Assembly (NCBI RefSeq): GCF_014200015.1
Contig: NZ_JACHOT010000005.1
Coordinates: 186,001 to 250,000, forward strand
Reading direction: 5' to 3'
Origin: Aminobacter niigataensis
GTDB taxonomy: Bacteria > Pseudomonadota > Alphaproteobacteria > Rhizobiales > Rhizobiaceae
DNA length: 64,000 nt
Of the stretch, positions 31,312 through 35,307 are shown in pieces (position 1 is the stretch's first letter; the number at the start of each line of letters is the position of its first letter). The notes under the pieces were generated by a model. The model was not told the origin of the DNA. It saw nothing but the letters and a program-made list of their open reading frames with translations, and did not search any database. The translations under genes were made by a program, and so were the position numbers.

Positions 31312-31824
31312 ATGAAGTCTGGGCTTTTGAAAACCTTGGCCAAGGTGTTGGTCGCCGCTGTCTGCCTGGCTCCCATGCAGGCCGGCGCGCAGCAGAGCGG
31401 CACGGTCAAGTCCACCCATGGCGCGTGGTCGATCATCTGCGACACGCCTGCGGGCGCCACCAACGAACAATGCGTGATGATGCAGAACGTCATCGCCGAA
31501 GACCGCCCCGAGATGGGGCTCTCGGTGGTCATCCTGCGCACCGCCGACAACAAGGCCGAAATCCTGCGCGTGCTCGCGCCGCTCGGCGTGCTCCTGCCCA
31601 ACGGCCTTGGCCTCAACGTCGACCAGAAGGATATCGGCCGCGCCTATTTCGTGCGCTGCTTCCAGGACGGCTGCTATGCCGAAGTGATCCTCGACAAGCC
31701 GCTGCTCGACACGCTGAAGACCGGCAAGGCGGCCACCTTCATCGTCTTCCAGACGCCCGAGGAAGGCATCGGCATTCCGGTCGATCTCAACGGTTTCGGT
31801 GAAGGTTTCGCCGCGCTGCCGTAA
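31312..31824 (+). CDS. Invasion-associated locus B (IalB) family protein
   Basis: 170 aa exported protein. Start ATG 31312 with GGAG 5 nt upstream; signal peptide ends near MQAGA. The IalB pattern is clear: GAWSIICDTPAG, QCVMMQ, LRVLAPLGVLLPNGL, YFVRCFQDGCYAEVILD. Named from Bartonella, but the family is common in non-pathogenic rhizobia and its molecular role is unknown. Confidence 0.9.
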   Translation: MKSGLLKTLAKVLVAAVCLAPMQAGAQQSGTVKSTHGAWSIICDTPAGATNEQCVMMQNVIAEDRPEMGLSVVILRTADNKAEILRVLAPLGVLLPNGLGLNVDQKDIGRAYFVRCFQDGCYAEVILDKPLLDTLKTGKAATFIVFQTPEEGIGIPVDLNGFGEGFAALP

Positions 31825-31857
31825 TCTCGCGCGTTACGACGCTCTAGATCCAGCGCC

Positions 31858-32100
31858 TCAACGCGCCTTGAACGGCGAGATCGGCTCTATGAGCTGGGCT
31901 TCGGACATCGGTTCGACTTCGAAGCCGTGCCGGCCTGCATAGCTGCGCAGTGCCTCGGCTGCGGAAGGTTCCGAGACCTCCACATCGATCATCGACCGCG
32001 ACCGGGACGTCACCGAGATGCCGGGCAGGCTGTCGATCTCGCTCGCCACCTGCGCCGCATCCCTCGCAACCTTGCCAATGATCAAAACCAGCTTTTCCAC
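31858..32100 (-). CDS. 80-aa protein, possible stand-alone I9-like protease inhibitor
   Basis: GTG start with GGAG 9 nt upstream. No signal peptide, no cysteine. The predicted order is beta (KLVLIIGKVA), alpha (RDAAQVASEIDSLPG), beta (ISVTSRSR), beta (SMIDVEVSE), alpha (PSAAEALRSYAGRHG), beta (FEVEPMSEAQLIEP). That ferredoxin-like order is the fold of subtilisin propeptides and of free I9 inhibitors (yeast Pbi2, Pleurotus POIA1). It lies 91 bp downstream of the S8 protease gene on the same strand. The inhibitor/chaperone role is an inference from fold pattern and position; no homology search was possible. Confidence 0.55.
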   Translation of the reverse strand: MEKLVLIIGKVARDAAQVASEIDSLPGISVTSRSRSMIDVEVSEPSAAEALRSYAGRHGFEVEPMSEAQLIEPISPFKAR

Positions 32101-32191
32101 GCGTCAGCACTCCAGCGCCACGATCAATCTCGCGTCGTTGCCTGAGGATATAGGGCGCCGCTCCGGCAGCGCAACCCGCGGACGCCGGCCG

Positions 32192-33697
32192 TCAGATGAT
32201 CATGCCGCCACCCTCGCGGATTGCACCGAAGCCATGCTTGCGCAGGCTTGCGAAGGCCAGTTGCCTCATGGCCTGATAACGCGCCCTGGTGGGCGGCATC
32301 GTCAGGACGGCAGGATTGGCTGACAATATCCGTGCAATCGCACCCGTCATTGCCGGACATGCCATCGATGTACCGCTCATCGGCGCATATTGGTCGCCCG
32401 GCACGGTGGATACTACGCCTGCCCCCGGACCGATGAGATCTATTCTGGTGGGCGCATGCCCCTCATTGGAAAAGGTGGCGAAGAAGACGTCACGATCGGG
32501 GTCGCCGCGGTCGCTTGATACCGTCCAGCGGTCGTATGCGTTGGCAGGCAGGCCAGGTTCCCAGCCAAGTGCCGAAACCGCAATGGCATCCCGATGCCGG
32601 GCCGGAAACGCCACAAAGCGCCGAAAGTCGTTTCCAGCCGCGGCGACGACGAGAACGCCCTGCTCGGCGGCATCCTCTATTGCCTGCGACAGCACCCTGT
32701 CATCGTGGCTCGGACTGGCTTCCCGTTCGGCCTTCAGGCTGAGGTTGATGATATGGCATCCGTCGTCGACCGCCTGCTCGATCGCCCGGTGAATCTCGAA
32801 GTTCCTCGCGATACCCGTGGCTGGATCGTCGAACACCCTGTAGCTGCGAATACTTGCGCCCGGCGCCACGCCTGCGTACCCGTTTCCGCCATTGCCGGCG
32901 ATGATGCCCGCGACATGAGTGCCGTGGCCGATCGACGAATCGTCATCCCCTTCCACGTTGGTGAGATGGTTGTGCGGCCCGACGCCGCTGTCCACGACCC
33001 CAACAACCACTCCTCTGCCGCTGCCCGCAGGTCCCGGTGGAAGAAGATGCCTCAGACTGTCGGCCGAGCCAGCCAGATCGATCGGATCGAGCATAATCAC
33101 ACTGCCTGAGACGAGGTCTGCCTTCCGCTGGAGATATCCCCAATGGCCAGCAAAGCCAGGCTCGATGGCAAGCATCGCGTCCATCACCGCTTTTGCCCGC
33201 AGTCCGAACCGCACAATCCCGGCGCTGTCCGATACTGCCGTGAGTTGCTGGCTGCCGTTCTTCAGTCCCAATGTCGCAATCGCATTGCCGATGGGTTTGT
33301 TGGTACCGGCTGACTGCAGGGCGATGCTAAAGAATTCGGCGCCGGACGGACCGAGGCTTCCGGTCAGGCGAAGTCGACCGACACGAACATCAGCCACGGC
33401 CATCGTGTAGTTCACGACGGGATGGAATGTTCCACCCACTGCCGCTGGGGCTGGCCCCGCAATCGAGGTCCTGACCAGCGCGACCCCGCTTTGCGGAACG
33501 ACCTCCAGAATCTCCAGGCCGCGGGTCATTGCTTCTTCAGCCATGGGCCTGACCGCCACGGGCAGGGCGCCCCACGCCCCTCCGGCCGGCGCAGCCAGAA
33601 AATCCAACTCCGTATCGATGGCCACTACCGCCTGAAGCGTAGCCACCAACTGTTCGCCACTGGACCGATGATCCGGAATAAAAACATACTCTTCCAT
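32192..33697 (-). CDS. Subtilisin-like S8 serine protease without signal peptide
   Basis: 501 aa. The catalytic triad is complete: Asp236 (GVVDSGVG), His258 (IGHGTHVAGI), Ser444 (SGTSMACP), with oxyanion Asn356 (AAAGND). Residues about 1-95 are unrecognised. About 100-205 resemble a transthyretin/carboxypeptidase-regulatory-like beta sandwich (GNAIATLGLKNGSQQLTAVS, GFAGHWGYLQRK). The protease domain is about 225-460. No signal peptide and no classical I9 prodomain are seen, so it may act in the cytoplasm. Start ATG 33697 follows GGGGGAG. A small gene downstream may encode the missing I9-type partner. The pair sits between ialB and tldD and is flanked upstream by AT-rich DNA, suggesting later acquisition. 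Confidence 0.88.
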   Translation of the reverse strand: MEEYVFIPDHRSSGEQLVATLQAVVAIDTELDFLAAPAGGAWGALPVAVRPMAEEAMTRGLEILEVVPQSGVALVRTSIAGPAPAAVGGTFHPVVNYTMAVADVRVGRLRLTGSLGPSGAEFFSIALQSAGTNKPIGNAIATLGLKNGSQQLTAVSDSAGIVRFGLRAKAVMDAMLAIEPGFAGHWGYLQRKADLVSGSVIMLDPIDLAGSADSLRHLLPPGPAGSGRGVVVGVVDSGVGPHNHLTNVEGDDDSSIGHGTHVAGIIAGNGGNGYAGVAPGASIRSYRVFDDPATGIARNFEIHRAIEQAVDDGCHIINLSLKAEREASPSHDDRVLSQAIEDAAEQGVLVVAAAGNDFRRFVAFPARHRDAIAVSALGWEPGLPANAYDRWTVSSDRGDPDRDVFFATFSNEGHAPTRIDLIGPGAGVVSTVPGDQYAPMSGTSMACPAMTGAIARILSANPAVLTMPPTRARYQAMRQLAFASLRKHGFGAIREGGGMII

Positions 33698-33739
33698 CTG
33701 CTCCCCCAATTCTGCCCGATCTGATTGAGTGCAGCGACC

Positions 33740-33768
33740 ACAATACTCCTTTTGGTTGCTCTCATCAA
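33740..33768 (-). promoter_or_regulatory. Candidate promoter of the S8 protease operon
   Basis: Read leftward: TTGATG (33768-33763), 17-bp spacer, TATTGT (33745-33740), which would place the transcript start about 36 nt before the ATG at 33697. The surrounding 33720-33810 is visibly AT-richer than the rest of the window. Each box matches the sigma-70 consensus at four of six positions. Confidence 0.5.
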
Positions 33769-33897
33769 TTTATACACCTCTGGATTGTATTTCAAAAGCA
33801 GCGAATACGGCATCCCTCGCCTCTCCGACCAGGCTAACGATTGCGATGACGTCCAAGCCGCCCTACATCAGGTTCAAACCTCTCCGGGATCCCTGCC

Positions 33898-35307
33898 ATG
33901 AACCTCGTCAGCCAGTTCGACATCACTGAAGACCGCGTGCGCAAGATCGTCGCCGAGACGATCGAAGGCGCCGACGACGGCGAATTGTTCCTCGAATATC
34001 GCGAAGGTGAGGCGCTGATGTTCGACAATGGCCGGCTGAAGACGGCCAGCTTCAACACCGACCAGGGTTTCGGCCTGCGCGCGGTCGCCGGCGAAGCCAG
34101 CGGCTATGCCCATTCCAGCGAGTTGTCCGAAGCCGCCCTGCTGCGCGCCTCCGACGCGGTCTCGGCCGTCAAGGGCGGCTATTCCGGTACATTGGCTGCA
34201 GCGCCGGCCCGCACCAACCGTCATCTTTACGGCGAAGAGAACCCGATCTCGTCGCCCTCTTTCGAGGCCAAGGCCAAGCTGCTGCAGCAAATCGACGCCT
34301 GGCTGCGCGACAAGGACCCGCGCGTCCGCCAGGTGACGGCATCGCTCGCCTCGTCGTGGCAGCATGTCGAGATACTGCGCGGCGACGGCCAGGTCGTGCG
34401 CGACATCCGCCCGCTGGTGCGCATGAACGTCGCCGTGGTGGTCGGCGATGGCGACCGCCAGGAGAGCGGCTCCTATGGCATGGGCGGGCGCAAGAGCTTC
34501 GACGAGTTCCTGACCGACGAGAGCTGGAAGAATGCGGCGACCGAGGCATTGCGCCAGGCGCTGGTCAATCTCGAGGCGATCCCCGCCCCTGCCGGCACCT
34601 TCGACATCGTGCTGTCCTCCGGCTGGCCGGGCGTCATGCTGCATGAAGCCGTCGGCCACGGCCTCGAAGGCGACTTCAACCGCAAGAAGACCTCTGCCTT
34701 CGCCGGCCTGTTGGGCCAGCAGGTCGCGGCCAAGGGCGTCACCGTCGTCGACGACGGCACCATTTCCGAACGCCGCGGTTCGATCACCGTCGACGACGAA
34801 GGCACACCGAGCGGCCGCAACGTGCTGATCGAAGACGGCAAGCTCGTCGGCTACATGCAGGACCGCCAGAACGCGCGGCTGATGGGCATGAACGCCACCG
34901 GCAACGGCCGCCGCGAATCCTATGCGCACCAGCCGATGCCGCGCATGACCAACACCTACATGACGTCTGGCGACAAGACGCCGGAAGAGATCATCGCCTC
35001 GGTCAAGAACGGCATCTACGCCGTTTCCTTCGGCGGCGGCCAGGTCGACATCACCTCAGGCAAGTTCGTGTTCGGCTGCACCGAGGCTTACATGATCGAG
35101 GACGGCAAGGTGACCCAGCCGATCAAGGGCGCCATGCTGATCGGCAACGGCCCCGATGCGATGCATCGGGTGACGATGGTCGGCAACGACATGAAGCTCG
35201 ACACCGGCATCGGCATGTGCGGCAAGGCCGGACAGGGCGTGCCGGTCGGCGTCGGCCAGCCGCATCTCAGGATGAACCAGATGACCGTCGGCGGCACGCG
35301 CGTCTGA
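33898..35307 (+). CDS. tldD: Metalloprotease TldD
   Basis: 469-aa subunit of the TldD/TldE (PmbA) peptidase that trims modified peptides and antitoxins. The zinc motif HEAVGH is at 249-254 followed by GLEGDF. The rest (GTPSGRNVLIEDG, QPMPRMTNTYM, GGGQVDITSGKFVF) is typical. Its partner tldE is not in the window. It diverges from the S8 protease operon. Confidence 0.96.
   Translation: MNLVSQFDITEDRVRKIVAETIEGADDGELFLEYREGEALMFDNGRLKTASFNTDQGFGLRAVAGEASGYAHSSELSEAALLRASDAVSAVKGGYSGTLAAAPARTNRHLYGEENPISSPSFEAKAKLLQQIDAWLRDKDPRVRQVTASLASSWQHVEILRGDGQVVRDIRPLVRMNVAVVVGDGDRQESGSYGMGGRKSFDEFLTDESWKNAATEALRQALVNLEAIPAPAGTFDIVLSSGWPGVMLHEAVGHGLEGDFNRKKTSAFAGLLGQQVAAKGVTVVDDGTISERRGSITVDDEGTPSGRNVLIEDGKLVGYMQDRQNARLMGMNATGNGRRESYAHQPMPRMTNTYMTSGDKTPEEIIASVKNGIYAVSFGGGQVDITSGKFVFGCTEAYMIEDGKVTQPIKGAMLIGNGPDAMHRVTMVGNDMKLDTGIGMCGKAGQGVPVGVGQPHLRMNQMTVGGTRV

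What the first reader, a model, noticed from the sequence alone, without database searches (positions are those of the whole stretch)
31858..33813. Signal-less S8 protease paired with a stand-alone I9-like 80-aa protein
Seen: an S8 protease with complete triad (Asp236, His258, Ser444, Asn356), no signal peptide and no ordinary I9 prodomain, followed 91 bp later by an 80-residue gene with a predicted beta-alpha-beta-beta-alpha-beta order. Known: in subtilisins an I9 domain chaperones folding and inhibits the enzyme; free I9 proteins such as yeast Pbi2 and Pleurotus POIA1 inhibit proteases in trans. Inference: the chaperone/inhibitor is supplied as a separate, co-transcribed gene, so this would be a two-gene cytoplasmic protease module. 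It sits beside an AT-rich leader, between housekeeping genes.
Basis: partly seen in the sequence, partly recalled or inferred. Interest (0 to 1): 0.72.

Follow-up and report, generated by a model that had tools for sequence, protein, structure and literature searches.

The report
Protease with separate pro-domain-like partner gene
A bacterial subtilisin-type protease without an export signal is followed by a gene for a small protein shaped like the pro-domain that folds and blocks such enzymes, and the two genes recur together in other bacteria, most likely as an enzyme and its own restraint.

Summary
On the minus strand lies an S8 protease (ATG 33697, stop 32192, 501 aa, triad D236/H258/S444 with N356, no signal peptide seen). 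After 91 bp comes an 80-aa ORF (32100-31858). [quoted passage not shown]

The pair is a conserved module. The nine best protease loci in 394 family genomes all have a small ORF directly behind; adding class and phylum searches, 12 of 17 do. In 72,556 plasmids one small protein and its protease hit the same eight records. Searches of 394 family and 398 phylum genomes gave no convincing orphan. At one ialB-tldD site the two genes are present or absent together in nine congeneric genomes.

Best reading: the small protein is the protease's trans-acting pro-domain-like inhibitor/chaperone. This is not shown: no Pfam I9 match, only weak mixed Foldseek hits (ASP chaperone ORF2 ranks 12th), no complex modelled, and the window's partner is not significantly similar in sequence to partners outside its group. 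Whether the protease keeps a degenerate cis pro-domain is open.

Precedents: Myxococcus PopC/PopD, Aeromonas ASP/ORF2, Plasmodium SUB1-ProM. I call it a new variant of a known kind.

The parts
32192..33697 (-). S8 (subtilisin-type) protease gene, 501 aa from ATG 33697; triad D236, H258, S444, oxyanion N356
   Evidence: Pfam S8 1.3e-39; triad and Asn present in 19 of 19 aligned paired proteases; Foldseek best match subtilisin 1st3 E 7.4e-20
33383..33697 (-). N-terminal region, residues 1-105, no known domain; possible degenerate cis pro-domain
   Evidence: no significant Pfam match; pLDDT blocks 26-47; mixed profile evidence
33077..33373 (-). predicted all-beta domain, residues about 109-207
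   Evidence: strands in the model, pLDDT 64-84 from residue 121 on; sub-threshold CarboxypepD_reg/Big_1 matches in three of four relatives scanned
32270..33019 (-). S8 catalytic domain, residues 227-476
   Evidence: Pfam range; pLDDT 70-97 except a loop at 381-400
32101..32191 (-). 91-bp spacer between the two genes, with GGAG at 32110-32113
   Evidence: no terminator-like site found in it
31858..32100 (-). [quoted passage not shown]
   Evidence: AF2; conservation
33701..33707 (-). ribosome-binding-like GGGGGAG before ATG 33697 (3-nt spacing)
   Evidence: sequence
33767..33795 (-). weak sigma-70-like promoter match in the AT-rich leader
   Evidence: 1 found, 0.6 expected by chance

Best explanation
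The two genes form an enzyme-restraint pair. The S8 protease is made without a signal peptide, and the small protein made from the next gene is its dedicated trans-acting pro-domain-like partner: it packs on the catalytic domain through the face of its beta sheet, puts its C-terminal tail in the active-site cleft, helps folding and keeps the enzyme silent until the partner is degraded or removed. Shown: genes, triad, fold prediction of the partner, purifying selection, recurrent adjacency, presence and absence as a unit at one site. Inferred: binding, inhibition or chaperoning, the role of the tail, the cell compartment, the trigger and the substrate.
For: Pairing: a small ORF behind 9 of 9 protease loci at E <= 1e-57 in 394 family genomes, and behind 12 of 17 at E <= 1e-45 over family, class and phylum searches. 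In 72,556 plasmids the L007 small protein (E <= 0.01) hits 8 records and its protease (E <= 1e-40) hits the same 8. The L100 small protein as query lands on one plasmid place, again directly behind an S8 gene. No convincing orphan in 394 family and 398 phylum genomes. Leave-one-group-out HMMs recover the partner of groups b, v, h, p, d and one of two in e at E 1e-15 to about 1e-3. Present or absent together at one site in nine congeneric genomes. [quoted passage not shown] Foldseek lists procarboxypeptidase entries and, at rank 12, the ASP chaperone ORF2. Distances of the two proteins co-vary (r 0.95 over 19 loci, 0.89 over 11 representatives). In the window's group the tail is more conserved than the body, 6 of 8 against 21 of 69 columns invariant, p = 0.02, with the tail chosen after seeing the alignment.
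Against: No sequence-level link to I9 (for profiles). All Foldseek hits have E >= 0.017, the fold is a common one, and no subtilisin pro-domain is among the 50 rows shown. For the window's own group the leave-out HMM is not significant (best E 0.5), so its link to the other partners rests on position, size and predicted fold. Five of 17 related protease loci have no partner (G235, G835, G964, G1000, G1026), and one of the 12 with a partner has a disrupted protease frame (L094). The strong orphan-test hits were all rows of the query alignment. No complex was modelled. The distance correlation is expected from shared descent alone.
Confidence: 0.68

Rival explanations
1. The small protein is only a folding helper (external chaperone like ASP ORF2), consumed once the protease is folded, and regulation happens elsewhere.
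For: [quoted passage not shown] ORF2 (3wqb_B) is in the Foldseek list.
Against: ORF2 also inhibits ASP (IC50 84.3 nM), so the roles may not separate; our protease has about 225 residues before the catalytic domain.
Confidence: 0.15
2. The pair is a proteic toxin-antidote or defence module: an indiscriminate cytoplasmic protease held by a labile inhibitor, carried on plasmids and at insertion sites.
For: Patchy presence as a unit at a site that holds another gene in one congener; seven intact pairs fetched lie on six plasmid records; a PADLOC 'subtilase' model matches at 2.5e-36.
Against: The PADLOC model may be a general subtilase match (its system was not looked up); neighbours differ between loci; the window copy lies beside ialB and genes that read as coxB and tldD.
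Confidence: 0.12
3. The small ferredoxin-like protein has a separate function and is merely co-transcribed.
For: Ferredoxin-like folds are very common and the Foldseek list is a mixture; no sequence link to inhibitors.
Against: No convincing free-standing homologue in 394 family and 398 phylum genomes and no plasmid hit away from an S8 gene; same-strand adjacency with gaps of -5 to 146 bp in 19 paired loci.
Confidence: 0.1

Closest known systems
PopC/PopD of Myxococcus xanthus (popCD operon)
   Same: S8 protease without signal peptide, N-terminal part with no recognisable domains, 50.8 kDa, complex-forming inhibitor encoded in the same operon (passages seen)
   Different: PopC is finally secreted and cleaves CsgA; sequence relation to our proteins could not be tested (no myxobacterial genome within reach); whether PopD has this fold was not looked up
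Aeromonas sobria ASP and its external chaperone ORF2
   Same: chaperone/inhibitor encoded directly downstream of a subtilase; ORF2 C-terminus at the catalytic site (passages seen); ORF2 is in our Foldseek list
   Different: ASP is an extracellular S8B (kexin-like) enzyme without pro-peptide; ours has no signal peptide and about 225 residues before the catalytic domain
Plasmodium SUB1-ProM, Toxoplasma MIC5, yeast peptidase B inhibitor, Pleurotus POIA1 (stand-alone I9-type inhibitors)
   Same: small free-standing pro-peptide-like proteins; SUB1-ProM lies beside subtilase genes (passages seen)
   Different: eukaryotic; our PDB-sequence searches matched no such protein
Bacillus intracellular subtilisins
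   Same: S8 enzymes without signal peptide (recalled; PDB match 7y6m)
   Different: short cis pro-peptide, no partner gene (recalled)

Membership tests
Peptidase family S8 | significant profile match | tested here: met
   Pfam PF00082 1.3e-39
Peptidase family S8 | Asp/His/Ser triad plus oxyanion Asn | tested here: met
   D236, H258, S444, N356; same in 19 of 19 aligned paired proteases
Peptidase family S8 | subtilisin fold | tested here: met
   predicted model, Foldseek 1st3 E 7.4e-20
Inhibitor family I9 (small protein) | Pfam PF05922 or PDB sequence match | tested here: not met
   Pfam I9 is insensitive: of six presumed S8 pro-domains scanned, one passed the I9 cut-off, and two had neither an I9 nor a related pro-domain match
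[quoted passage not shown]
   AF2 prediction only, pLDDT 80
Inhibitor family I9 (small protein) | closest solved folds are subtilisin pro-domains | tested here: inconclusive
   weak mixed list, ASP ORF2 at rank 12, no subtilisin pro-domain in the 50 rows shown; VIA library unavailable
Inhibitor family I9 (small protein) | inhibits a subtilase, tail in the active site | not testable with these tools
   no co-folding or assay available
PopC/PopD | signal-less S8 with undefined N-terminal part and partner gene behind it | tested here: met
   against the description; absence of a signal peptide judged by eye
PopC/PopD | sequence homology to PopC and PopD | not tested
   no Myxococcus genome reachable with the calls available
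ASP/ORF2 | chaperone-like gene directly downstream of the protease | tested here: met
   91-bp gap; chaperone function itself not tested
ASP/ORF2 | kexin-like S8B protease with P-domain, exported | tested here: not met
   no P-domain match, no signal peptide seen; that a P-domain defines ASP is recalled

The most novel reading that the evidence does not exclude
A widespread, undescribed class of mobile 'split zymogens': signal-less S8 proteases that may keep a degenerate pro-domain in cis and are held by a second pro-domain copy supplied in trans, acting as an enzyme-antidote system whose antidote is also the enzyme's folding catalyst. It may have arisen repeatedly, since other S8 groups (L103, L109-L111, L113) also carry a downstream protein, in the latter four with some profile similarity to I9-type pro-domains.
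Probability: 0.2. Interest if true: 0.75.

Novelty: new variant of a known kind. Interest (0 to 1): 0.5.

Why it matters
A 2022 survey states that in subtilases other than ASP an N-terminal pro-peptide in the same chain acts as the folding chaperone, so its chaperone and inhibitor roles are hard to separate. A conserved natural split would offer many pairs in which folding, inhibition and release can be tested one by one with a simple two-gene construct. It would also make the popCD arrangement a special case of a broader bacterial way of keeping a signal-less subtilase safe. Partner genes are so divergent and short that some are unannotated (Variovorax) or oddly named ('hemagglutinin' in Rhizobium), so the arrangement is easily overlooked.

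Tried and rejected
A tail motif [V/I/L]-Pro in the small proteins looked promising but is not above chance: 7 of 11 representatives against a shuffle mean of 4.57, reached by 571 of 5000 shuffles, and most of the window group lacks it. Searches of the small protein against Pfam (best a sub-threshold PALP match, 0.023), NCBIfam, PDB, plasmids, PADLOC and PHROGs gave nothing significant. Profiles of 19 small proteins, of 14 protease N-termini and of four downstream proteins of another S8 group matched no inhibitor in PDB sequences up to E 10. The window protease as plasmid query gave 145 records, none covering 80%. A cis I9 domain could not be settled: AF2 with 58 rows left residues 1-105 at pLDDT blocks of 26-47, because only L011 besides the window covers that region; and the N-termini align to ordinary pro-domains worse than reversed controls (8.8 against 14.9 and 12.7). 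The idea that the partner of the L109-type S8 group duplicates those proteases' own N-terminus was not supported (16.3 against 12.2 and 11.2 in reversed controls; L113's N-terminus was cut wrongly in that run). A first distance comparison used a wrong reading frame for L099 and was replaced. A first look at the own genome's other S8 genes printed nothing and was repeated with another filter.

Papers: PMC6434023, PMC5638518, PMC6993865, PMC4320627 and PMC9549277 were seen as passages only; all other papers only as search listings.

Full report
WHAT IS THERE. The window holds, on the minus strand, an S8 protease gene and an 80-codon gene 91 bp behind it. The longest reading of the protease starts at TTG 33709 (505 aa). 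Pfam recognises only the catalytic domain (PF00082, 1.3e-39). AF2 with 58 aligned rows gives a confident subtilisin domain, a moderately confident all-beta domain (residues about 109-207), and an unreliable first 105 residues. The 50 Foldseek rows shown are subtilases. The N-terminus shows no signal peptide by eye and hydropathy. Of the genome's three other S8 genes, two begin with typical export signals and one does not (judged by eye).

THE SMALL PROTEIN. Foldseek against PDB gave no match at E <= 0.001. The best is an 80-residue chain of a procarboxypeptidase entry (E 0.017; by its length the pro-segment), and the Aeromonas ASP chaperone ORF2 stands at rank 12 (E 0.047, TM 0.48 by query length) in a mixed, mostly ferredoxin-like list. 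No sequence library links it to I9. It is under purifying selection: dN/dS 0.18-0.58 over ten pairs of five genomes, against 0.13-0.37 for the protease. Within the window's group the last block LIEPISPF is more conserved than the rest (6 of 8 against 21 of 69 columns invariant, Fisher p = 0.02; block chosen after seeing the alignment).

IS THE PAIR CONSERVED? The protease profile A3 was run on 394 family, 289 class and 398 phylum genomes. At E <= 1e-45 there are 17 distinct places; 12 have a small same-strand ORF directly behind, 9 of 9 in the family set. One of the 12 (L094, second copy in G067) has a disrupted protease frame. The five without are G235 (behind a gene that reads as LanC-like), G835 (a convergent gene follows) and three with longer C-terminal parts (G964, G1000, G1026); the partner HMM finds nothing at E <= 1 that fits a partner in these five loci (full model). 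Weaker S8 matches belong to other groups. On plasmids six fetched loci carry the pair (L004-L009, for the unannotated Variovorax ORF), the Cupriavidus copy L010 is degenerate, and Hyphomonadaceae L011 has it too. In 72,556 plasmids the L007 small protein (E <= 0.01) finds 8 records, and its protease (E <= 1e-40) finds the same 8; four are Agrobacterium records with equal identity, and the Variovorax match is partial (59%, E 0.005). The small protein of L100 finds one plasmid place, 37 bp behind another S8 gene and annotated 'hemagglutinin'. The window's own small protein found no plasmid, and that of L101 none.

ORPHANS. A profile of 19 small proteins was run on 394 family genomes (16 with a match at E <= 0.01) and 398 phylum genomes (7). 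The ten strong genomes (E <= 1e-14) all have the S8 gene in front, but all ten were rows of the query alignment, so they are not independent. The other 7 family and 5 phylum genomes hold 13 partial matches at E 4.8e-4 or worse, 10 of them in frames of 173 aa or longer; none of the 13 has an S8 gene within about 1.5 kb. With E-values counted per genome, about 8 such genomes are expected by chance in 792 searches, so I take them as chance; they were not examined further. So no convincing orphan was seen, within the sensitivity of this profile.

ARE THE SMALL PROTEINS ONE FAMILY? Leave-one-group-out HMMs over 2,174 six-frame segments of 33 loci found the left-out partner in groups v (1.4e-15), h (4.2e-13), b (1.6e-10 to 1.1e-4, 4 of 4), d (2.7e-4 and 0.0015), p (0.0011) and e (0.0011 and 0.11), weakly in c (0.0097 and 0.64; L099 not reported at E <= 1) and m (0.11), and not significantly in the window's group (0.5 and 0.87 for 2 of 5, the other 3 not reported); unrelated segments reach E 0.14 in such runs. 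The link of the window's partner to the rest therefore rests on position, size and predicted fold more than on sequence. Pairwise distances of protease and partner correlate (r 0.949 over 19 loci, 0.888 over 11 representatives; 0 of 5000 permutations reach either), which shared descent alone would also produce.

THE MODULE IN THIS GENUS. The gene beside the protease reads as tldD, and that behind ialB as coxB (labels by eye; IalB by Pfam). tldD was found in 9 of 10 genus genomes. The module lies between ialB and tldD in three (G000, G004, G006). Five have ialB about 95 bp from tldD, and G005 has what reads as a GNAT acetyltransferase there instead (my reading of the frame, not a domain search). 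Two genomes of another genus have the module between the same two genes (L097, L098). At this site the two genes are present or absent together.

A SECOND PRO-DOMAIN IN CIS? The relatives' N-termini read like beta, variable part, beta-turn-beta, helix, beta (by eye). The profile of eight Rhizobium-type small proteins aligns over 53 columns with the proteases' N-termini (score 20.5 against 10.5 and 9.0 in reversed controls, probability only 7%), and group c does so over 17 columns (15.5 against 8.7 and 8.2). The window's group (11.6 against 9.7 and 9.4) and group d (7.7, below controls) do not, nor do the N-termini align to ordinary pro-domains (8.8 against 14.9 and 12.7). In the window's own protein the helix part is replaced by an Ala/Pro-rich stretch. 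This is a lead, not a result.

OTHER S8 GROUPS. Distant proteases L109, L110, L111 and L113 are followed by 113-117-aa proteins whose profile aligns to I9-type pro-domains better than controls (score 28.3 against 12.9 and 12.4, probability 41%). L103 is followed by a 165-aa ORF that overlaps its end by 4 bp and closes in a similar way. A split pro-domain may have arisen more than once.

HOW IT MOST LIKELY WORKS. The partner binds the nascent catalytic domain as a pro-domain would, puts its tail in the cleft, and keeps the enzyme off until the partner is removed. This is argued from ASP/ORF2, where the ORF2 C-terminus interacts with residues around the catalytic site and ORF2 inhibits at 84.3 nM, and from PopC/PopD, where PopD binds signal-less PopC and its degradation releases PopC for secretion. 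The trigger and the substrate here are unknown. Cytoplasmic location is inferred; PopC shows that a signal-less S8 enzyme can leave the cytoplasm.

NOVELTY. A 2022 survey of subtilases names ASP as the exception to the rule of an N-terminal pro-peptide and gives PopC its own subgroup. The listings showed no paper describing this alpha- and betaproteobacterial group; most subscription papers are not held, so this is weak evidence of absence. The principle is known; the distribution, the signal-less enzyme with a beta domain before the catalytic one, and the divergence of the partner make it a new variant.

Noticed in passing
window 31824-33898 (ialB-tldD spacer) and L142-L150: The ialB-tldD spacer varies: the S8 module in three congeners, an apparent GNAT acetyltransferase gene in G005, only about 95 bp in five.
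   Followed up: partly
L109:2412-2753, L110:780-1130, L111:1071-1409, L113:1053-1394: A different S8 group is also followed by a 113-117-aa protein ending like HPLVKAIRPNRKL, with profile similarity to I9-type pro-domains.
   Followed up: partly
L103:2496-2993: A second S8 gene of genome G496 is followed, with a 4-bp overlap, by a 165-aa ORF with an I9-like C-terminal end (judged by eye).
   Followed up: no
L007 and L151 (Rhizobium leguminosarum pRL9b4, NZ_CP050098.1): One plasmid carries two different S8-plus-partner pairs about 8 kb apart; one partner is annotated 'hemagglutinin'.
   Followed up: partly
L004:3956-4195 (Variovorax sp. WDL1 plasmid): The partner ORF behind the S8 gene is unannotated in the gene table used here, which is incomplete by its own description.
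   Followed up: yes
L005:4530-6662, L006:4539-6641: A DNA/RNA non-specific endonuclease gene follows the pair in both a Rhizobium and an Agrobacterium plasmid.
   Followed up: no
L093: A related S8 protease without a partner lies behind a gene that reads as a LanC-like cyclase, perhaps a lanthipeptide maturation protease (judged by eye).
   Followed up: no
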